NCBI GenBank assembly: GCA_037043015.1
Contig: CM073323.1
Coordinates: 17,617,758-17,681,757 of the forward strand
From: Bryum argenteum
Lineage: Eukaryota > Streptophyta > Bryopsida > Bryales > Bryaceae
Reading direction: 5' to 3'
DNA length: 64,000 nucleotides
Position numbers and translations under genes: made by a program. This document shows, piece after piece, positions 30,306 through 62,746 of the stretch (position 1 is its first letter; every line of letters starts with the position of its first letter). The notes under the pieces were generated by a model. That model was given only the letters and a program-made list of their open reading frames with translations. It made no database searches and was not told where the DNA came from.

Positions 30306-31931
30306 ATGCTAAAGTCAGTAAGTGTTCAGTATCGTTGCATACACAAGTTGTGGTCAGTCATATCTTTGAGAATCCAGCGTCATTCCAGATGCACAAGCTC
30401 ACGTGCTGTCCTTCTGAAATATGGTTGCACTGGTTCCTTTCACATGCCGAATCATGGAACTCCACGACCAACCGGCCGGAGCAGTCCAATTGGAACAGTC
30501 CGGCGTGCGCCTCAGGATGCTGGAACAGTCCCAGGTCCCAGCCAGCAGAAACGTGCACGAAAAGACCGAGGTCCAAATTGGTTGTCAGCGGAGATCGTGG
30601 CCCTTATTGCCATCAAACGAGAGATGTACTTTGAGGAATTGGATACTATTGACGGCAGAGATTTGATGACACCGGATACTAGCAAATGGAATAGAGTATC
30701 ACAACACATTATGCGACTGAATATTTCACCATGTGTACGTGACGGGGCAGCATGCAAGACGAAGTGGAACCAGTTGATACCCGATTACAAAAAGATTGCA
30801 GACTATCTCAGTCGTACTGGAAGGAACTCGGCAGAATATTGGGACTTGAATGCAGCAAAGCGTAAAGCGGAAAGCCTACCCCGGCTCTTTGCCCAAGATG
30901 TTTACGAATCCATCCACGAGTGGTATGGTAACCGCCCGCAGATACACCCGCCTCACGTAAGGGATTTGCTCGCACACAATGACAGAAATTACATGCCGGC
31001 TCTCCAAGAGAGAACAGACGATACAGAGGAGGTCCTGAGCGAACCAGAAACTGATGATCCAACAGACACACCTCAGCCCGAGGCCGTGGACACAACGGAA
31101 GAGTCGTCTCCAGTACTGCGCTCGCCTAGACAGAGTCTTTCTACTCCACCGCAGCCTGCATGCCAAGCAGACCCTCAGGGAAGCCAAGCTCCCCGACCTT
31201 TTAACGGCCTCCCTCCAGGTGTGTCCCCCCAAGTGATCAGTTCATCAGAGCAGTCTGAACTTGCGGTACACAGGAGGCCACGGAATACTGCGGTGAGGAG
31301 GAAAAGTTTAACTGGTCACTCTGTGATAGCTGAAGCCACAAAAGCTACAGGTGCCATCATGGCTGCTCAGATGCAGGAAATAGCTGACGCCAACAGAGAT
31401 TTAGAGCGGTCAAAAATTGATATTCAATTAAAGTTGTTCACCGAGCAGATGGAATACCAGCGGGACAAGGACAGGCGCATGTACAAAAATGCAGTAGTGG
31501 CAAACGAGAATGCACGGTTGGCAATAATGAAACATGGGGAGATGGTGAGCTGTTTGGCTCAACTCTCCACTGTGTTAAGCACCGGCCTCAGCAGGTCAGG
31601 AGGAACACCACATTCCGGGACAGCAAAGACAGGCCATCAGCCCTTCGGCTCTAACAATGCCCCTCCAACCTTCTCTGAGCCACTGAATTATGATTCCAGC
31701 GGCCTTCGAGGGATCATGGATGCTGGCATTGCAGTGCCTCCGGCGTTTGCCACAAATGCAACTGGACAAGGAATACATAATCGACACACTAACAACGAAG
31801 CAGCTACAACTGGAGGACATGGTACCGGTGATCCTGAACTCCAGGCTACTACGACAACAGAAGACACCATCAGTGACATCGAGGCAGTGCAAGCTCCAAA
31901 TGCAGGTGCGGCAGACAATCTCCCCCTATGA
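30306..31931 (+). CDS. Harbinger SANT/Myb-like (trihelix-type) protein
   Basis: This is the second protein of the Harbinger element. In this family it binds the element ends and helps bring the nuclease into the nucleus. The frame is open for 541 codons; a likely start within it is the ATG at 30444 (MPNHGTPRPTG). The SANT/Myb-like domain lies about residues 90-185 of the full frame, with NWLSAEIVALIAIKREMY, KWNRVSQHI and CKTKWNQLIPDYKKIADYL. It is followed by a Pro/Ser-rich spacer and a helical segment (IAEATKATG to EQMEYQRDKDRRMYKN). A possible upstream exon begins ATGGAGAACCGCCCACC at 30156 and ends at a GTAAGT donor (30223). No stop breaks the frame, so it could still be expressed. Confidence 0.85.
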   Translation: MLKSVSVQYRCIHKLWSVISLRIQRHSRCTSSRAVLLKYGCTGSFHMPNHGTPRPTGRSSPIGTVRRAPQDAGTVPGPSQQKRARKDRGPNWLSAEIVALIAIKREMYFEELDTIDGRDLMTPDTSKWNRVSQHIMRLNISPCVRDGAACKTKWNQLIPDYKKIADYLSRTGRNSAEYWDLNAAKRKAESLPRLFAQDVYESIHEWYGNRPQIHPPHVRDLLAHNDRNYMPALQERTDDTEEVLSEPETDDPTDTPQPEAVDTTEESSPVLRSPRQSLSTPPQPACQADPQGSQAPRPFNGLPPGVSPQVISSSEQSELAVHRRPRNTAVRRKSLTGHSVIAEATKATGAIMAAQMQEIADANRDLERSKIDIQLKLFTEQMEYQRDKDRRMYKNAVVANENARLAIMKHGEMVSCLAQLSTVLSTGLSRSGGTPHSGTAKTGHQPFGSNNAPPTFSEPLNYDSSGLRGIMDAGIAVPPAFATNATGQGIHNRHTNNEAATTGGHGTGDPELQATTTTEDTISDIEAVQAPNAGAADNLPL

Positions 31932-32312
31932 AAAGGCATGACAGGGACAGTCGGTGAGGTGGGAGGCCATGTTCCTGACTTTAGGTCGCACTTCACCAAT
32001 TATTGAAGATGACAGCGGTTTAGGTCCTTCTGTTCGGCCACTCTGCATGGACAACAGTGGGCTTAGATTAGAGTGGAAGTGTGTTGATTAGAATTTCTAT
32101 TCTAAAAAGCATGTGACCTCACTTGGATACAGTAAAGGTGATATTCTGCATCACTCCCTCAACAAACTTGCATTGCATGCCTATTACAACGTATCGCATG
32201 CCTCTGATAACATGCACCAACAACACTAGTATGATAGAATAACTCAAGTGCAGGAGGATGGAATGCAAAAAAACATAACATGGAAGTGGAATTAAGAATC
32301 TTACCTCGTCGC

Positions 32313-33663
32313 CTAGGGTCCTTGTCGTCGCTGCATGGTTAGGTAAACACCGAGCTCCTGTCGCTTCGCAATACCAGAAGGCGTTGCTGTGCCATCCCTC
32401 TGAGCCTCGGGTACTTCTGCTGCCCCCCCCTCCTCATCTTCCACCCCACCGTCAAGTCCCTCGCTACGCAGCACGTCCAACAGATTCTCTACTCCCTCGT
32501 GCGATTGCCCCATGAGAACATTGTGGAGTATGGCACAACACATAATGACATCAGGCAGAAAAGTTACATGCAAATCAGATTTAACAAGTAACTCCCTGAA
32601 TGTTTGCTTCAGGATCCCGAAGGCATTCTCCACCATGCAGCGACCTCGCCTGAGCCTTCTGTTGAATAGTGTTTCCGACACACTTAACGGTGCCGGAGTC
32701 CTGTGGGGAACCATGAGCCAAGGAAGCAAAGGGTAACCTAGATCTCCAATGATATAAGGAGCAAAACCCCTCACAGCTTGGTTGGGGCCGAGTATATCTT
32801 GTTGCATTGCCAAAGAGTAAAGAGACGAACGACGCAACATTCTGGAATCATTACTTGATCCCGACATACCTAAGTACAGGTCGAGGAATCGTTTCTCACT
32901 ATTAACTACTGTTTGGCAGTTGATCGTGTATCCCCCGTTCTTGAAATAATAGTAATCGGCGGCGCCGTAGGCTGGCTTAGAAATAGTCACATGCACGCCA
33001 TCAATTGCGCCAACGACACCAGGAAGACCACACATCTGGAAGAACTTAGACTCCGTGTCAAGTAGCCTGTTTCCTGAGGGCCAAAGGATCTCGTGACGTA
33101 ATGTGTCGTTGACAGCGTGTACAACATCTCGAAGGACCAGGGACACGGTGCTCCGCCCAATAGCAAACATTTCGCTACACACTGTCAAGTTTGCTCCATG
33201 AGCAAGCTTGAACAGTGTGCACGCTACCCTGATGAGCACCGAAATGGCCAATCTATACCTGGTGTTTTCTCTCTGTACATGGGGTTTTAGTAACTCTGAA
33301 AGAGCAATCACAGCAGGTTTTGTCATACGAAAACATTTGCACCCACCTGGAATTGTCATACTGCTCGAGGAGGAACCTCGAGAACCAAGTCGTGGACCTA
33401 GGCTTCACCCAAAATTCCACCTCTTCGTCTACGAAATTCAAGGCTAAGCACAGGCGGAAGTGATGCAAAGTAGCTCCCATGTCACTCTGGGCGTCAACGT
33501 ATCCAGCGTTTAGGTTCTCGGCAATGGCCACGAAGGGGTCCTCCTCGTCCTCGTCTGTTTCCAGCAGCATTGGCCTCAGGGGAATTTCGACATTGTTTAG
33601 GATTAAAACCAACAACCAGATACTGAAAGCAATGTGAGTCCACTGATCAGGTACGGGATCCAT
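32313..33663 (-). pseudogene. Harbinger DDE nuclease, disrupted by one frameshift
   Basis: The minus-strand frame ending at 32313 codes for the PIF/Harbinger nuclease (DDE_Tnp_4). In the 348-codon open part the catalytic triad is visible as GAIDG (D120), SSNDS (D171) and CMVENAFGILK (E244). The upstream part, from the ATG at 33663 (MDPVPDQW), gives the expected N-terminal segment FSRFLLEQYDNSRW, but in a different frame. The two parts meet within 33335-33350, where family members read RW-x-x-CFRM continuously. A one-base change there shifts the frame. Unless a tiny intron or frameshifting rescues it, the nuclease is dead. The catalytic part itself looks well preserved, so the loss may be recent. 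Confidence 0.85.
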
Positions 33664-49373: not shown

Positions 49374-51564
49374 CTTTGCCGACTGCGACGGATGGCGACA
49401 ACATAGCCGGAGTTCATGTGCAGCCGCGCTCCGATCCTTGAAGGGAACGTGGCGAGGTTTACAAAGCGTCCCCGCCTTGTTGAAGAGTCCCCGGCCGACG
49501 TCGGAGCTAGGGGCGGTCGATGTGGGCAAGCGAGGGTCACGGCCAAAGTACTGCGGTGCGACCAAAGACTCGTCGATCATCACCGGGCGGTCAAGCGGAA
49601 GTGGATCTCACCGTAAGAAACGCACAGGTACTTGGACAGACTCTCAACTCCAAGCAGCGATTGCAGCAGTAGATGCCGGTAACAAAATTGCAACTGTAGC
49701 AAAGGATTTTGGAATTCCAACGTCGTCGCTGAGGGATCATGTCTACGGGAGAACTTTGCAGCGGAAAAAAGGGAGGCAAGGAGTCTTAACTGTCGAAGAG
49801 GAAACAAATCTGGTACGTTGGATTCTAGATATGCAAGACCACGCTCATCCCATTTCAGTGATGGAACTTAAAAGCAAAGTTACACAAATTACGCAAGAGC
49901 GTTGGACACCCTTTACAGACGGAATACCTGGACGTGGATGGCTTCGGTGGTTTAGATATCGCCATCCAGAGTTGACGCTAAGATCCGCACAAGGTTTGGA
50001 AGAGGGACGCGCAAGAGCTCTGAATCCAAGTAATGTAGCTTCGTTCTACAAAAACCTTGAAGAAGCATACGACCGCCACAAGTATCCTGCCGCCTACATT
50101 TGGAATGCAGATGAATCGGGAGCACAAGCAGGCAAGAATGGAGGAGGTGCTCTGGTCTTTGCACGAAGGGGCACTAGATCTGTGCACACAACATTGCCAA
50201 ACAGTAGAGAGCATTTGACGGTCTTGTCATGCATCAACGCAGCAGGTGAATACATTCCAAACTTTTACATTTTCAAAGGCAAACGTAAGCAAAGAAACTA
50301 CATAGCTAGATGCGAACCGAAGGCATGCATGGCTATGCAACCAAATGGCTGGATGACAGGATTCTTGTTCTCAGCTTGGATCTCACACTTCATAGCAATT
50401 GTCAAAGAAAGGTACGGAATATCAGAGAGTAATAGACACCTTCTTATCTTGGACGGTCACGGGTCACACGTGACGCTTGAGGTCGTGCAGAAGGCAAAAC
50501 ACGAAGGCCTTGACATCATCACCTTGCCTAGCCACACAAGCCATAGGTTACAACCTTTAGACATTAGTATCTTTAAACCTTTCAAGGTAGCATTTCGGCA
50601 ATACAGGGATAAATGGACTATACAAAACAAAGGTCGTGGAGCACAAAAAGAGGAACTGGCAGAATGGGTATCACTAGGGCTACAAAAGGCACTCACACCT
50701 CAAAAAAATGTCAAGGGATTTGCAGCCACAGGGATATGGCCCCTACGTCCTACAGCAATGGAGTCTCACATGACGCCTAGCTCATGCTTCGTTGAAACTA
50801 TGGAAGGAGGCGACGATGTTGAAGGACTTGATTCAGATCAAGATGACCAGATGGACGACCTGCGGCACTGCGACAACGGAGACAATGGTCGACATCTACA
50901 GAGGGCCGACTCACACCAGCACTCCGAGTCCGAGGAGCAGGCCGCGTCGGAGCTGGCTCCGCTGGGCGCCGTCAATCTGCAAGGAGTGTCTGCGACAGGG
51001 GACAATTACTTTTCCGGCTACGGCGCTATGAGTGCCGACATGAACGAAGACCCGGTCGGTATGGAGGAGGGTGAGCCCTGCATTCGTGAAACGCAGCAGT
51101 ACTTCGTACAATCAGACAGTGCAAACTTTACAGAAGGTGACGAAGACACGGACTCCGAAGGAGATGCTCCGCCAAGTCTCGAGCCGCGCAATCTCTTCCC
51201 ATTGCCGCACCTGCAACGACCTACAAGAATCCGCTCACAAGCTGAACCAGTCATTGACTATTCAAAATCCATTCTTATGACTTCTAAAGAGTATATCGCA
51301 GCAATGAAAGAGAAGGTCGCAAAGCGAGAAGCTGTAGCGAAAGAGCGAGAGGCACGCAAGAAACAAGCGGAGCTTAGAAAAACTGAACGTGAAGAGGCAA
51401 AGGCACGGAAAGAAGCCGAGAAAGCAAGAAAAGAAGCGGAGAGGGTCTTACGGCGGATTCAAGCGGAGCGAAAGAAGGCTGAAAAGGAGCGCGAGAAGGC
51501 GAGGCGTCAGGCTGAGCAAGCCCGGAAGTGTGAAGAAGCAGAGGCACGAAGGCGCTCCAAATAG
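49374..51564 (+). CDS. Pogo-like (Tc1/mariner, DDE_1) transposase, open frame without ATG
   Basis: This frame codes for a pogo/CENP-B-type transposase, the enzyme that cuts and pastes its own element. Numbering from position 49438, residues ~66-105 are a psq helix-turn-helix (WTDSQLQAAIAAVDAG, IPTSSLRDHVYGRTL). A second DNA-binding (CENPB-type) region follows around 120-185. The DDE domain shows D225 (IWNADESG), D339 (LLILDGHGSH) and D375 (LQPLDISIF), a DD35D spacing. An acidic spacer and a Lys/Arg/Glu-rich helical tail (~625-708) end the protein. No stop or frameshift breaks the ~710 codons, so this looks recently active or domesticated. The frame is open back to a stop at 49371-49373 but has no ATG before 49831, which lies after the helix-turn-helix. 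A spliced upstream exon is therefore likely. Confidence 0.9.
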
Positions 51565-53472: not shown

Positions 53473-55993
53473 ATGGATGTCGTGAACGGCAAGATTGTGT
53501 CTGCGAGGACAGAGCGATCTAGATCAGACATTTGGAGTGCGCTCAAACCCACCCGGAGCTCGTTGCTGCTGGAACCGGGAACTGGAGTACGCGTGCCCGT
53601 GCACTCGTCCACAGGGAGCTTCTGTGCTCTGCGTGGGTTTCGAGAGTTTTACGGTAGTCGGTGCGGCAGCGGCAGCGGCCATGGACCACCTGTTGCTTCT
53701 TCCTTTGAGCCAGGATGGAAGCGGTGTAGTAGCACCGATCATATCCGGGTCTCTTATTGTAGTCCTATTCATCGTCACTGTTCTACTACTGCTGCTGCTA
53801 CTCCTGCTACTGACAGTAGTGTTAGTGCTAGTACTCATAGTGGTTGTAAGCGTCTTGCCTCCGCCTCGTCGATTAGCAATGCGCTCTTCGACGAGGAGAT
53901 GGACCTGTACGAATCGCATGTCTCCCGCGCTGTGATCGGCCATCTCGATCGATCTGTCGGTAAAGCACTCTCCTCGTCTCCCCCTGCTGCTGCTGCGGCG
54001 GCGGGATCTGCGAATCCGTTCAAGCGGCCTCGGATTGAGCCACCGTCTGCAAGTGACCAGGTGGGTGGTGATCAGTACCGCCATTTTGCTAGCTCGGAGA
54101 CCTGTTGCTACATTCGATTACTTACAAGAGAAAGAAACTCATGTTGTGTACAGACTTACTGAAAGCCAATTTGCACTTGAATGGCAGGTTGATGAGCCAT
54201 GGACAGCGCCTTTGCGGTACCTGCTGCGCAAGGTGATGAGTGCGTCGGATGTCGGAGAGCTTGGCAGAATCGTTCTGCCAAAGGTATGCATGTCTGTCCA
54301 ACTCCTTCAATCTGCCGAGTGTCAACATTCATCTCCATGAATCATCTGTCATGGAGATTTTGATTCTCGGTGATTCCGACGTGTTAGAATGCCCTGTTTT
54401 CGGTAGTACATGAATAAACTTGCTGTTCCAGATGGTTAATCAGAGATTACTTGACGTTTGTTTGTGATGTAGAAAGAGGCCGAAGGTATGCTTCCCCAGA
54501 TAGACACTCAGGGCAAGCAGCTGCAAATGAAAGACTACAGCTTTTCCAAAAGCTGGTTCTTCCATTACAAGTACGTAATGCCCTCAATTCCGCTATTCTA
54601 AGTGCCACATGGTCGTACCAAGACCCATCTCCGGGTCATGCCTGCAAATTTTCCATCATGGCCGCATTCTCTACTATCATTCATTTCTCCTGTAATATCA
54701 TCAAATGCTTTCTAGAATATCATCATCGTCACCTCTGTCATATCACCATGTAATATCATCAAATGCTTTCTAGAATATCATCATCGTCACCTCTGTCATA
54801 TCACCATCTCCTCTAAAACAGTCGTCTTAAAGCATTGACCAAAAATGACTCAAATTTACATGTTCTTTTTGGTGACTGGTCTTACCCGATAGGCGATACT
54901 CTAATTGTTGGAGTTCGAGTAAGCATTCAACACGGTCCACCATATGAAAGTGGAAGTGCTGTACAGAGTACACTCAGAGATGCTATTTGATGAACTTTAA
55001 ATGGATGGAGCAGGTGGTGGGCCAACAATAAGAGTCGAATGTATGTGCTACAGAACACAGGTCTGTACATGCATTCCTTCTCTGTCTTATTATGTTCCAA
55101 TAAACCATGTTGATTGCTGAATTCCAATAAAATTGAGCAAATGAAAATACAAGAACACTGAAGATCTTTCTGGTTTATGGCAAAAGTGAGTTGGGATTTT
55201 GACACAACTATAATTACCTTACTCCACATGACTCCATTTTGCTTGTAAGAGTAGATTCTCTAACACTACAAGTGATTTCGATTGGTAAAGTTCTAACTCT
55301 TTTACAGGTGAATTTATCAAGTACCATGGCTTAGAGCCTAATGACAGCTTCGTTGTGTATGAGGATAGCAGCGGTAACTTAGTAAGTTTCTTGCCAACGA
55401 AATCTCAAATTTATTAATCAAGTATCTAATACATGAAGCGCTAATACAAGCTCATGTATTACATGGTAATACCCGTATGTCATAGGCCAATTTGACAACC
55501 TTTTGTCAAATAATTATTCTTTGTTTGAGGTTTTCAATTCGACAATTGCTAAATTCGGTTCTTTTGGGTACCAATAATGTCTTTTCTAGATAGAAATTTC
55601 TAAGCTTTTAGGAAATTTTTTATTTTGATTTTAATTTAATTATCATCGAACTGACCTATGACATACGGTAATGTTTCTTGTTTCAGACAAGTCATGAAAT
55701 ATTGGCGACATTTCTTGATTGGTCTAATTGATTGCTATGGTATTTGTTTTGGCTATGGAGTTCAGGTAGCTCGAGGTCAGAAGAAACTAACATGGATTTC
55801 ACAGATGCATTCTCCTGGTAACCCCTAAAGTCGACTGAGGCCATATTTCTGGTCGTTTGGGGTTTGGTCAGCCTATGATTTACTATTTTTAGCTCTCATG
55901 AAGTTAAAACCTTTTGCAAGTTGAAAAGTTTTCCCATACATTTCACGCTTCAAAATTCCTCATACGTTAAGAGATATTCACGGTCAAAGTTTG

Positions 55994-56032
<39 letters not shown>

Positions 56033-56676
56033 ATGTGAAATCTGCCCAAAAAAGCTGCCCAAATTGCGATACATATGCTCATTTATTCTCAAAATCTACC
56101 CAGTATCAATTAAATCGCAGAAACTTCAAAAACTCACCAAAATTGAAATTTTACTTTTTTCCAAGTTTTGTTTTTTCGGACATGTAAGTAAGGTTCCAAG
56201 GCATTGCTCTCACCCTTTAGATTTCCAATCCAACTACTTTTCACATGCCATTTTCATTGTCAAAGACCAGCCTTTGTAGTTGAGTTTTGACATACCTCCA
56301 TGTAAATAATCAAGCCTTTCTTTAAGTTCTATAGGTTGCATGAACTATGTTCATACATACAAGTTAAATGCTAGATCTTATGATTACATACCTAAAATTT
56401 TGTCAAAATCTGAAAACTTTCACCTTGCATCAAAAATGGGTAGTTTCTGGCAATTTGAGGCTTGGACGACTTTAGGGGGTTAACAGGGAGTGCTCTCAAT
56501 CAGAAAAAGTAGCAGCAAGTAAACCCACCGCCATTGTGGAGGAGGCCATTTCTTCCTTCAACTCCTCCATTCCAGACGCTTCAGCTTCAACGACCATCCT
56601 TCAGGTCAGCTGTCAATCCACTCCTCTTTACCTCCTAAAGTCAAAATCGATCATAATGTTTATGGATTCGCTTTAG
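53473..56676 (+). CDS. B3-domain transcription factor, LEC2/FUS3/ABI3-like (seven exons)
   Basis: Exons read 53473-54060, 54188-54283, 54473-54570, 55014-55060, 55308-55381, 55766-55817 and 56504-56604 or on to the stop at 56674-56676; all GT-AG with matching phases. The product is about 350-375 residues. Exon 1 is a Ser/Ala-rich region with a basic patch (FKRPRIEP) that could be a nuclear signal. Residues ~205-300 form a B3 DNA-binding domain: LRYLLRKVMSASDVGELG, RIVLPKKEAEGMLP, KSWFFHYK, NNKSRMYVLQNTGEFIKYHG and FVVYEDSSGNLVARG. The KKEAE and NNKSRMYVL motifs place it with LEC2/FUS3/ABI3 regulators of embryo and seed or stress programmes, which bind RY (CATGCA) sites, rather than with VAL or ARF types. 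A MITE lies in the last intron and begins four bases after exon 6. If unspliced, its end gives a stop three codons on. The C-terminal exon is the least certain part. Confidence 0.85.
54691..54806. repeat. Perfect 58-bp tandem duplication in a B3-gene intron
   Basis: The 58-bp unit beginning TGTAATATCATCAAATGCTT is present twice without a difference (54691-54748 and 54749-54806). It lies in intron 3 of the B3 gene. Its AATATCA words resemble those of the 500-bp MITE at 28058-28557. Confidence 0.92.
55822..56479. mobile_element. TTAA-type MITE inside the B3 gene
   Basis: The left end CCCCTAAAGTCG and right end CGACTTTAGGGGG are inverted repeats. The right flank is TTAA (56480-56483) and the left flank is GTAA (55818-55821), one base off TTAA. 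The element is ~658 bp and contains an A37 run (55994-56030). The GTAA flank is also the predicted 5' splice site of the B3 gene's last intron. It belongs to the same end type as the other CCC/TTAA elements, with a different interior. Confidence 0.8.
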
Positions 56677-57447
56677 GAAGATATGTTACTTTTGCAAAAA
56701 CTGAAACTTTGACTCAATATATCTCAAGATCTGTACAGTGAAAGACAGGATACTATAATTGGATTATTCAAAATCCACCTGAAAAGTAGCAGTTTGAGCT
56801 TCATGTACGATCCACATAAAGCTGAACGGGAGTGATGGCCGCAAAGGTCGTGAAAAGCATTTGGATAAGGGAGATATTTTGAAGGTATCAATTTTGCAAC
56901 GGACACCGCTGTAAAGGGCATAAAACAAAGAATGATCGATGTGTGCTGTTGAACAGGGAAACAAATCTCCAGTGTGGGCAGCAGATAAGTTGGAGGACAT
57001 CGGAGAGCAAAACATGCATCAGCGAAACGGCACACAGCTTAGTACGAGAATCCAGGAGTTCACTCGAACGTAGGACCAAGATTTTGCAACAAACCCTTGT
57101 CTGTGTATAAACATTGGAGTTTTGGCACCCATGGCACAAAATTAAGAGCAAGCCGCGAACTTCTATGAAAACATTGTATGTATGTATGTATACCGGCAAT
57201 CGGCCTAGAATGACAATTTTATATCATAGGGCATGCCCTCGACAATACAAAAACCGCAATTTCATCAAAGACTGGTGCCTGTTGCCTGCCCTGGCAGGAA
57301 TGTTTGTATGTACACAGTGGCGATATCGCCAAATCAAAGAATGCGGGAATCGATTTACACACATGGCGATCAACAATAGTTACTGCAGATCTAGTATGTG
57401 ATTGCATACTTGTAAAGTTGGGGAATGGGTGGAAGGAGGAGTACTAG
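56677..57447. other. Intergenic DNA after the B3 gene
   Basis: This is the presumed 3' region of the B3 gene and of the convergent minus-strand gene at 57448. The open frames here, on both strands, show no family features. A short TGTA(TGTA)n stretch lies at 57176-57190. Confidence 0.35.
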
Positions 57448-60012: not shown

Positions 60013-62746
60013 CTACTGATTTGACAAGAAGCGCCTGATGTCGAAATTCTGGTAATTGTAAATAGTATTACCAAAAACTGGCGCAATATGAGGCATCGAT
60101 GATGTATTCATTATCCCTGGCAAAACCAGATTGCCGGTACTATTTGAGCTCGACCTTTGAGGTCTAGATAAGGGAAACTCATGATGCTGATTCATAACAG
60201 GACCTTGAACGTTCGGAAACATTGCTTGAATATTCGGACGAGTTGGCAACCGGTTCCCTCCACCTGGAAAATTAGGATTTGGATAACTGTACCTTCCACC
60301 ATCAGGTCTTGCTTGCCAATGATTGAAGAACTGCAAGTTATGGGAGGTAGCTTGATGATTGAAGAAAGCAGTGGATTGTTCTTGTTGTCGTCGCAAAGCA
60401 TCTAGTTGTTGCTGAAAAAAGCTTTGTCTCTGCAAAGCTTGACATAATTGCTACTTAAGAACTGCATTCACTCTGCGAAGTAGGGCCACGTTCTTCTGCA
60501 TAGCGAACCTAGTTCCTTTTGGAGCTTCTGCAACTCTTGGCAAAGTAAACATGATGTCGTTCAAATCATCACATGGAATCTCAATAAAATATTGAGCCTA
60601 GAATTGCATCTCTTCTTTGACCAGAGAAGCCGGTGTTGCTTGAGTAAATGTAGCAAAAGATTGCGAAACATGAGCTGTAGCAATAGGTTGCAAAACAAGA
60701 ACTGGTGCAGGTTCTGCATCGTCAATAATGGGCCGGAAACATGGCCGAGAGCTAGAATTCGATGCTCTAATTGGAATAGATGATGGAGGATCTGAATTGA
60801 TGATTGGTGGCTGAGAATCAGAAGCCAAGGTTTTGAACTCAATATCAAGCTCTTGGCCGCAATCTCCATGCTCCGTGATTAACAAACTCTGCAATCTCGA
60901 AGCTGTATTCGCTTCATGCCAGTCAGAAACCTCAATTTCGTAATGCCTTTGAAAATTCCTTGGTTCACCGTTAGAGTTAGGCCTCGCCAAGTTTTGCGGT
61001 GCTCTACTCCTTAAAATTTTACTGGGATCATAATGTTGAATGCTAGACAGTGCCTTGTGGCCAGAATTTGAAGCAATATCCTCCAACGGCACTTCAGCAA
61101 TACACATTCTCGTAATTGCCGTGACTCTCCCTGATTTATTGGTGTAGTCACCTATCAATCCAACAGCAGCTGCCATATCACGAACAAAGTGTTGCAATGT
61201 AGATTCCCCGAGGTTGGTATTTTTTTTTTGAACCACACAATCGTCTTAGGGTGTTGTATGGGCGATAAGAACAAGTCGCCCTGCTCCGAATTCTTTGGCA
61301 TGTGAGCTAGAAGGACTTTGAAGGTGTGGATCACATCAGGATCCTCAGAGTAGACAGCATCACAAAAATGATCAGGCTGGTATTTCGTCAGCGTTGGCTT
61401 GTGATTCTTTGAAAGTGTTTCGTCATACCTTGCAGAAAAAACATAAAATAAAATATATAATTAGAATGCCAAAAAATAGACTTTTTAACAGGGTTCTTCT
61501 TTTTCATTTCGAGGTGATACATTCGGTATATAATACCTGAGAAGTTCCCTCCCACGCTCATCGCTGCCTAGAGTAAAATCACACAGTCACAAATTGTACA
61601 ACTCTTTGTTTCTTCTCATCAAAAAAACAGTGGTGCAAAATAACACCATTCTTTTTTGGACACCACTGGGATGCGTAGGTTGATGATTCGGGTGAGCCAA
61701 GATTTTGATCTCAGCATCATCGGTGAAATAATCTACTTTCCTCCTAGCTTTGTTTGCACGTTCTAGTATGTTTTTCTTCATTGCAACTACCACTGATTTA
61801 TTTACTCGGCCAAAGTGTGGATGAGAATGCATGACAAACTGCTCCTCGTTGATACGAGTCTCATTGATCCTCTCACATTGCACCTGACAAAATATTCTAT
61901 TGAAGCTCTTGTAAATTTGCATGATGCTTTGGCTTGGATAGTGAGAACCGTTTTTTTTCAACAGAACATAAAAAAACTTGCACAACATGTGAGCAAGCTC
62001 TTTCAAAGGAATCTCCTCTAATTGAACAGACGTATCCATGCCACTTGCAATTCTCCATTCATTACAGCGATTTCTAACCCACGAGTTGCTCTTTTCAGTG
62101 CCGCTCTTTTCAGCAGCAGACATCCCACGTTCAAAAGCAAACTCATCGAACATAGCAAAGCCTAAGTAAGATACAGAGACTCTAGAAGAGCTACCGAGTT
62201 CATCTATTTCCTTCTCGAAATTAGCACAACTGTCTCCAACATCATTGATCACGGATTCTTGAACGTGATTATCCACAACATCTCTCCCTGGAAATTTGAC
62301 AATCGCTTGAACGTTGCTCGAGGGAAATTGAACAGTACTAGCCTCTACATCGCTTGGAGGAAACTCAATGCTCAAAGGAAATTCAAGAGGATGACTGCAA
62401 TTTGCAAGATCAGATTCGTTGTCAATCACCGAAATTTCTACTCAGCCATCTAAAACACCGATATCAGACTCATCGGTGACCACGGAAATTCTGACCACTA
62501 GCTAACAACTAACGAGGGATCAACTGCAACTCTCTTTCTATTTCTTCCCCGTTTTCTAATACTTGGACTAATCATATCTTGCTCCTGAGATAAATCCGTT
62601 TCATTAAAGTCAAAACCAAGATTGAACGAAGGACAAGAATCTGCAAATATCGATTCCTCTATCGGCAACACAATGGGAGATGAAACTAGATGCTTGATCA
62701 GGAAATTGTCTACCGGAACTAAATTTGCTATTGATCCTACTTTCAC
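60013..62746 (-). pseudogene. Crypton-like tyrosine recombinase relic
   Basis: The minus strand carries a long decayed gene. The N-terminal part (62429-61590) has a DUF3504/ZMYM-like layout: SWVRNRCNEWRIASGM, LAHMLCKFFYVLLKKNG, YPSQSIMQIYKSFNRI and HPSGVQKRMV. After a phase-matched intron (about 61536-61429) comes a tyrosine-recombinase C-terminal core: STLQHFVRDMAAAVGL, YTNKSGRVTAITRMC and SGHKALSSIQHYD. The core keeps the box II Arg, the GH and the final Tyr, but Lys replaces the expected His of HxxR. A Gln-rich C-terminal region follows. Lesions along the frame are stops at about 62495, 62443, 61587-61589, 60598-60600 and 60451-60453 and a frameshift in a 10-base homopolymer (61220-61229). 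It is a dead copy. Crypton elements move through such recombinases. Confidence 0.72.

What the first reader, a model, noticed from the sequence alone, without database searches (positions are those of the whole stretch)
55818..56503. A MITE appears to have created a new intron (or a new C-terminus) in a B3 regulator gene
Seen: exon 6 of the B3 gene ends at 55817, and the next four bases, GTAA, are both a 5' splice site and the left flank of a CCC/GGG-ended MITE (55822-56479). If the MITE and one flank are removed, the sequence reads straight through in frame (HSPGNRECSQSEKVAASKP) with no stop. With the MITE present, splicing from GTAA to the CAG at 56501-56503 restores the frame and removes the whole MITE plus about 24 bases of former exon. 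If it is not spliced, a TAA formed by the MITE end stops the protein three codons past residue P. Inference: a TTAA-to-GTAA base change in the target duplication made the donor. This would be intron gain from a piggyBac-like MITE in a LEC2/FUS3-like regulator.
Basis: partly seen in the sequence, partly recalled or inferred. Interest (0 to 1): 0.82.

Follow-up and report, generated by a model that had tools for sequence, protein, structure and literature searches.

The report
Transposon that likely became an intron
In a plant gene of the seed-regulator type, a short jumping DNA element sits inside what was probably one coding exon, and a one-base change at its edge looks like a splice signal that would cut it out of the message; no RNA evidence was available to prove it.

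Summary
A 658-bp MITE (55822-56479, perfect 12-bp TIRs) interrupts a LEC2-type B3 gene 10-16 residues past the B3 domain. Its family has hundreds of end matches in the host genome; its right flank is TTAA, its left GTAA. With the element left out (script only) the exon frame runs on 63 codons. Four of four AFL-class paralogs read in the same genome continue past the corresponding position without needing an intron, so insertion into a formerly continuous coding exon is well supported (about 0.85). The TTAA-to-GTAA change turns a non-site (-6.3 bits) into an average donor (7.1 bits; 10 of 19 donors of these genes score lower). Splicing itself is unproven. The rival, a truncated protein ending SPGNP, leaves the B3 domain intact and fits almost as well. 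No orthologue or RNA was reachable. Intron gain from DNA transposons via a target-site copy is a known mechanism (introners; maize Ds); a large introner survey found none in land plants. A piggyBac origin is suggested by the ends, but no matching transposase was found.

The parts
53473..54060 (+). exon 1, 196 codons, MDVVNGKIV...; similar N-terminus in two paralogs (L088, L084)
54188..54283 (+). exon 2, start of B3 domain to LPK
54473..54570 (+). exon 3, B3 domain
55014..55060 (+). exon 4, NNKSRMYVL
55308..55381 (+). exon 5, B3 domain
55766..55817 (+). exon 6, left half of the interrupted exon; ends phase 1
55818..55821 (+). left target-site copy, GTAA (family norm TTAA); candidate 5' splice site CTG|GTAACC
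55822..56479 (+). MITE, 658 bp, A+T 67%; deletion derivative (11 of 12 other two-ended copies measure 793-881 bp, one 595)
55822..55833 (+). left TIR CCCCTAAAGTCG
56467..56478 (+). right TIR CGACTTTAGGGG
55826..55828 (+). TAA stop met if the element is not spliced (protein ends SPGNP)
56480..56484 (+). right target-site copy TTAA plus C: TTAAC, the only YTNAY branch-point-like motif in 56440-56503
56485..56503 (+). former exon sequence that would be removed with the element; candidate 3' splice site TCAG at 56500-56503
56504..56604 (+). exon 7, right half of the interrupted exon, in frame
56957..57073 (+). possible last exon, phase 0, GNKSPVWAADKLED...TRT*; weak, one of 17 AG candidates listed

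Best explanation
A TTAA-targeting MITE inserted into a continuous coding exon of a LEC2-type B3 gene, just past the B3 domain. The left TTAA copy then changed to GTAA, which made a 5' splice site. The spliceosome removes 55818-56503: donor from the mutated left target copy, branch point plausibly TTAAC from the right target copy, acceptor a pre-existing TCAG in the old exon. The protein loses eight tail codons and keeps its frame. Insertion and base change are read from sequence and from the family; the continuous ancestral exon is inferred from paralogs; splicing is inferred from signals and frame only.
For: MITE identity and TTAA target. Paralogs: in 4 of 4 read, the frame runs from the last B3 intron through the conserved G.K for 29, 33, 103 and 145 further residues to a stop, past the MITE position (11 residues after G.K), with no intron needed. 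Empty-site frame open 63 codons (about 0.05 by chance, my arithmetic); on the measure used for 15 other copies the window copy is highest, 55 codons against at most 37. Donor 7.1 bits, 10 of 19 donors lower, 1 of 65 GTs in exons 1-5 as high; before the change -6.3. GTAA is rare: on the listed contigs C1-C3, 4 exact GTAA ends against 83 TTAA and 5 CTAA or ATAA (my count). Frame-restoring acceptor. A+T-rich insert, 67%. Without the MITE an intron from the same donor to 56503 would be only 24 nt.
Against: No transcript. Donor has C at +5; 16 of 19 donors have G. A stronger GT lies inside the MITE at 56184 (9.2 bits). Acceptor pyrimidine content is ordinary (0.47; native window acceptors 0.35-0.65). 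Codon test is ambiguous: 5.9 bits in the expected frame of 56485-56604, 6.4 in another, and -7.7 for 56605-56679, so part of the 63 open codons may be chance. The tail has no detectable paralog match. An open right flank could survive neutrally: 0.29-0.58.
Confidence: 0.5

Rival explanations
1. Truncation: the MITE is not spliced. It supplies a new C-terminus (G N P, stop at 55826) and perhaps 3' UTR; the old tail is dead sequence.
For: TAA directly at the MITE end. B3 matches end at residue 302-308, MITE at residue 318, so the DNA-binding domain stays whole. Tails of the paralogs differ widely in length (29-145 residues) and sequence, so the tail looks dispensable. An ATTAAA lies in the MITE at 56109. 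The codon test of the right flank is ambiguous.
Against: The GTAA change, seen in a few per cent of ends, makes a good donor. The right flank is still open in frame although the copy differs by 14.4% from its nearest held relative; weak, since a neutral flank would stay open with probability 0.29-0.58.
Confidence: 0.33
2. Mixed or out-of-frame splicing: the donor is used, but with 56486 or 56490, or a donor inside the MITE is used, giving alternative short tails.
For: AGs at 56486 and 56490 are nearer; the first gives SPGSALNQKK*. GTAAGT at 56184 scores 9.2.
Against: 56486 and 56490 lie 3 and 7 bases from the only YTNAY motif in 56440-56503; a branch point further up in the MITE was not looked for and remains possible.
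Confidence: 0.12
3. An older intron stood here, the MITE landed in it, and the rest was deleted.
For: Cannot be excluded without orthologs.
Against: 4 of 4 AFL paralogs read lack it. Only 28 nt of the 686-nt interval lie outside the MITE. Both flanks still read as one TTAA target in one frame.
Confidence: 0.05

Closest known systems
Introners (Gozashti et al. 2022, PMC9860276; passages read)
   Same: Non-autonomous DNA transposons, many with TIRs and short TSDs, that create introns; a 5' splice site taken from a TSD and splice sites taken from neighbouring exon are both described.
   Different: Introners are families with many intron copies. Here one copy is the only candidate I have: 15 other two-ended copies, of a much larger family, gave at most 37 open codons on the shorter side against 55 for the window copy, and the 5 other exact GTAA copies looked non-coding by eye. 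The paper reports no introners in land plants.
Maize Ds/Ds1 elements spliced from mRNA; Giroux et al. 1994, PNAS 91:12150 (titles seen in reference lists; paper not held; content recalled)
   Same: A plant DNA transposon in an exon behaves as an intron.
   Different: The Ds cases are recent mutant alleles and Ds is of the hAT superfamily (recalled); this is a diverged TTAA-type MITE present in the assembly.
LEC2-type AFL B3 genes of land plants (PMC5379062, passages read)
   Same: B3 domain near the C-terminus; best solved match LEC2 6j9c, E 9.4e-30.
   Different: The exon after the B3 domain is split by a MITE.

Membership tests
piggyBac-type MITE | TTAA target duplication | tested here: met
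   6 of 12 aligned copies have TTAA exactly at both ends; each of the other 6 differs by a single base at one or both ends. Window copy GTAA/TTAA.
piggyBac-type MITE | C-rich termini (CCC...GGG) in inverted repeats | tested here: met
   CCCCTAAAGTCG / CGACTTTAGGGG. That this is the piggyBac terminus is recalled.
piggyBac-type MITE | Autonomous relative with piggyBac transposase and the same ends | tested here: inconclusive
   116 PF13843 matches scored of 775 candidates, but the one copy whose flanks were read lacks such ends, and a 2.5-kb element with these ends shows no transposase-sized ORF (longest 149 aa).
Introner family | Many copies acting as introns | tested here: inconclusive
   No other candidate among 15 joined copies or 5 other exact GTAA copies, but this is a small sample of a family with 313 end matches.
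Spliceosomal GT-AG intron | GT donor of normal strength, AG acceptor, frame kept | tested here: met
   acceptor judged only by pyrimidine content
Spliceosomal GT-AG intron | Spliced transcript | not testable with these tools
   no RNA data
LEC2-type AFL B3 gene | B3 domain closest to LEC2/FUS3 | tested here: met
   LEC2 107.1 bits, FUS3 85.7, VAL1 57.9; Pfam B3 48.9 bits. Solved structures only.
LEC2-type AFL B3 gene | B2 domain upstream of the B3 domain | not tested
   short motif named; not searched

The most novel reading that the evidence does not exclude
A naturally established intron in a non-seed land plant was built largely from one target-site duplication: the left TTAA copy mutated to the donor and the right TTAA copy supplies the branch point, with the 3' splice site taken from the old exon. 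It would show a stepwise route by which ordinary TTAA-MITEs, with no splice sites of their own, become introns.
Probability: 0.27. Interest if true: 0.65.

Novelty: new member of a known kind. Interest (0 to 1): 0.45.

Why it matters
Natural intron gains with a visible source are rare in land plants as far as I know, and a large survey found no introners there. Here source element, target site, likely ancestral frame and the single base change can all be read, so the path from insertion to intron can be tested step by step in one gene.

Tried and rejected
Eight open codons as proof of one exon: rejected as weak, replaced by 63 codons plus paralogs. Codon-usage test: right flank 56485-56604 scores 5.9 bits in the expected frame and 6.4 in another; 12 of 385 overlapping non-coding chunks (best of three frames each) score as high; 56605-56679 scores -7.7; not decisive. 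Neutral-decay simulation: 0.29-0.58 chance that 33 codons stay open, uninformative. Search for a relative of the tail in the genome: 3 matches, all the gene itself. Search for the autonomous partner: no inverted TTAA ends around one piggyBac transposase copy (flanks of 1801 and 2001 bases read); near C2:22522369 a perfect right end but only a poor left end with 3 mismatches; a 2.5-kb element with perfect ends (L098) is a long inverted repeat around a retrotransposon-like ORF (the retrotransposon reading is mine, no family search was run on it). Other GTAA copies as introns: none evident by eye. Rows dropped: one search also listed B3-like matches at C4:16506372, C6:8235582, C3:11483140-11483617, C11:2108547, C5:3196750 and C11:5957179; only the C3 one (L082) was translated, looked VAL-like to me, and none was used in the count of four. 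Structure prediction was not used. MITE age in years is not given, since no rate is known for this plant.

Full report
What is there. The window lies in a genome of 258.8 Mb in 25 contigs; B3 genes make it a plant. At 53473-55817 there is a six-exon gene model whose exons join without stop into 318 residues. Residues 204-302 match the B3 domain of LEC2 (6j9c, E 9.4e-30), ahead of FUS3 (3.2e-23) and VAL1 (8.8e-15); Pfam agrees on B3. The sixth exon, 55766-, is broken after 55817 by a 658-bp element with perfect 12-bp inverted ends.

The element. It belongs to a repeat family: 56 matches, the window copy included, from 40 scored candidates, a lower bound because 2855 candidates existed; end motif 313 times with at most one mismatch, reversed control 4. 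Of twelve further copies with two ends, six have TTAA exactly on both sides and each of the others differs by a single base at one or both ends. Eleven of these twelve measure 793-881 bp and one 595, so the window copy is a deletion derivative; it also has an expanded poly-A tract. It differs from its nearest held relative (L002) at 89 of 618 aligned positions, 14.4%, and from the majority of the twelve at 103 of 615. The insertion is therefore probably not fresh, though its own branch cannot be separated from that of its relatives.

The target. The right flank is TTAA, the left GTAA. Exact GTAA ends number 6 in the genome, this one included. The listing shows 100 of 313 ends; its one-mismatch part reaches only into contig C3. 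In that part 83 are TTAA, 5 are CTAA or ATAA, and 6 are GTAA with a change further in; 4 of the 6 exact GTAA ends lie on these contigs (my count). So GTAA is a change from TTAA, seen in a few per cent of ends.

Was it one exon? With element and one target copy left out in a script, the frame runs 63 codons past the site; the other two frames stop after 12 and 8. The second part of this stretch, 56605-56679, does not look coding (-7.7 bits), so the true exon may end near 56604. Scored as 15 other copies were, the window copy has 55 open codons on its shorter side (introns read through), the highest of 16; the next is 37. Four other genes of the AFL class were read: C8 (L084), C2 29.18 Mb (L080, L081), C2 22.57 Mb (L088, reverse strand) and C4 (L085, reverse strand). 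All four have the same last intron inside the B3 domain, and from there each reads through the conserved G.K for 145, 103, 33 and 29 residues to a stop. The MITE lies 11 residues after G.K. Identity to the window gene is 43-51%, so these are paralogs, not close orthologs. None needs an intron where the MITE lies. Splice sites of the paralogs are inferred from protein homology, not from RNA. Further weaker B3 matches were not used.

Can it be spliced? A donor matrix from 19 introns of these five genes, placed by homology and frame, gives CTG|GTAACC 7.1 bits. Leave-one-out scores of the 19 range from 1.1 to 11.8, and ten are below 7.1. Among 38 GTs in 55766-56600 it ranks third; above it are the intron-exon border at 55766 and a GTAAGT inside the MITE at 56184. 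Of 65 GTs within exons 1-5 of this gene one scores as high. With TTAA instead, the nearest GT scores -6.3. Against it, +5 is C, where 16 of 19 have G; one of the 19, AAG|GCAACA, also has C there. The matrix is small. In-frame AGs after the MITE begin at 56503, 56509, 56512 and 56515; those at 56486 and 56490 shift the frame. In 56440-56503 the only YTNAY motif is TTAAC at 56480, the right target copy plus one base, with its A 20 bases from 56503 and only 3 and 7 from 56486 and 56490. About one or two such motifs are expected by chance in 60 bases (my estimate), so this is a model, not evidence. The yUnAy rule and spacing are recalled.

What else could it be? Unspliced, the protein ends SPGNP at a TAA in the MITE end. 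The B3 domain would be whole, and the tails of the paralogs are so different that loss of the tail may be harmless. This rival is almost as likely. The signs that the right flank is still read as protein are weak: coding score 5.9 bits in the expected frame but 6.4 in another, 12 of 385 non-coding chunks as high, and a 0.29-0.58 chance that 33 codons would stay open without selection. A further phase-0 exon at 56957-57073 is possible. If real, an unspliced message would carry an early stop before an exon junction. I could not test it.

Family of the element. TTAA duplication and CCC ends fit piggyBac (recalled criteria), and the genome holds many piggyBac transposase domains: 116 scored of 775 candidates, most of the listed rows without stops. 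But no transposase gene with these ends was found in the few places I could read. I therefore call it a TTAA-type, probably piggyBac-related MITE.

The plant. Not named. The largest contig (44.1 Mb) bears 1 of 150 scored B3 matches, which resembles the gene-poor largest chromosome reported for a moss (PMC10619864, passages). A moss is my guess only.

What is known. Transposon insertion is one of the commonly named routes of intron gain, with Oryza and Zea among the species listed (PMC3443670, section 7 and passages). Introners that take the 5' splice site from a TSD, or splice sites from the neighbouring exon, are described, and none were found in land plants (PMC9860276, passages). Maize Ds is titled as making an intron de novo (Giroux 1994, title in reference lists only). 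Searches for papers on MITE intron gain (1 paper), introners with TIRs, intron gain with cryptic sites in plants, intron gain in Physcomitrium with transposons (10 of 29 listed), piggyBac MITEs in plants and piggyBac in mosses or bryophytes (15 of 2371 listed) showed no such case in titles or abstract beginnings; apart from the passages named I read no full texts. So the mechanism is known in kind; this case, if spliced, would be a well-resolved natural example in a land plant.

Verdict. Observation confirmed; insertion into a formerly continuous coding exon well supported; the new intron plausible at about even odds; proof needs RNA or an ortholog.

Noticed in passing
whole genome G000: piggyBac transposase domain (PF13843) has 775 candidates, of which 116 were scored and matched, many in long open frames; unusually abundant for a land plant as far as I recall.
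   Followed up: partly
L081 near 1584 and L088 (reverse) near 863: In two paralogs the intron after LPK seems to begin with GC (AAG|GCAAGA and AAG|GCAACA), where the window gene and L084 have GT.
   Followed up: no
window 30306-33359: Myb/SANT-like ORF beside a DDE_Tnp_4 transposase ORF on the other strand: looks like a PIF/Harbinger element.
   Followed up: no
window 49438-51564: 708-aa ORF with DDE_1 and HTH_Tnp_Tc5 domains, pogo/Tc5-like transposase.
   Followed up: no
window 60598-62429, minus strand: Two ORFs, one with a weak Phage_integrase match below cut-off (22.5 of 27.1 bits), the other without a match: possible Crypton-like tyrosine recombinase.
   Followed up: no
L098 (C2:30680860-30683390): Perfect MITE-family ends 2.5 kb apart enclose a long inverted repeat around a retrotransposon-like ORF.
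   Followed up: partly
G000 contig C1: Largest contig, 44.1 Mb, with 1 of 150 scored B3 matches and 9 of the 94 listed one-mismatch MITE ends; perhaps a sex chromosome.
   Followed up: no
window 54691-54806: An exact tandem duplication of 58 bases inside intron 3.
   Followed up: partly
L002 and L003: The two nearest relatives of the MITE (C6 1.40 Mb and C4 1.82 Mb) share their flanking bases and a second MITE-like match, as in a segmental duplication.
   Followed up: no
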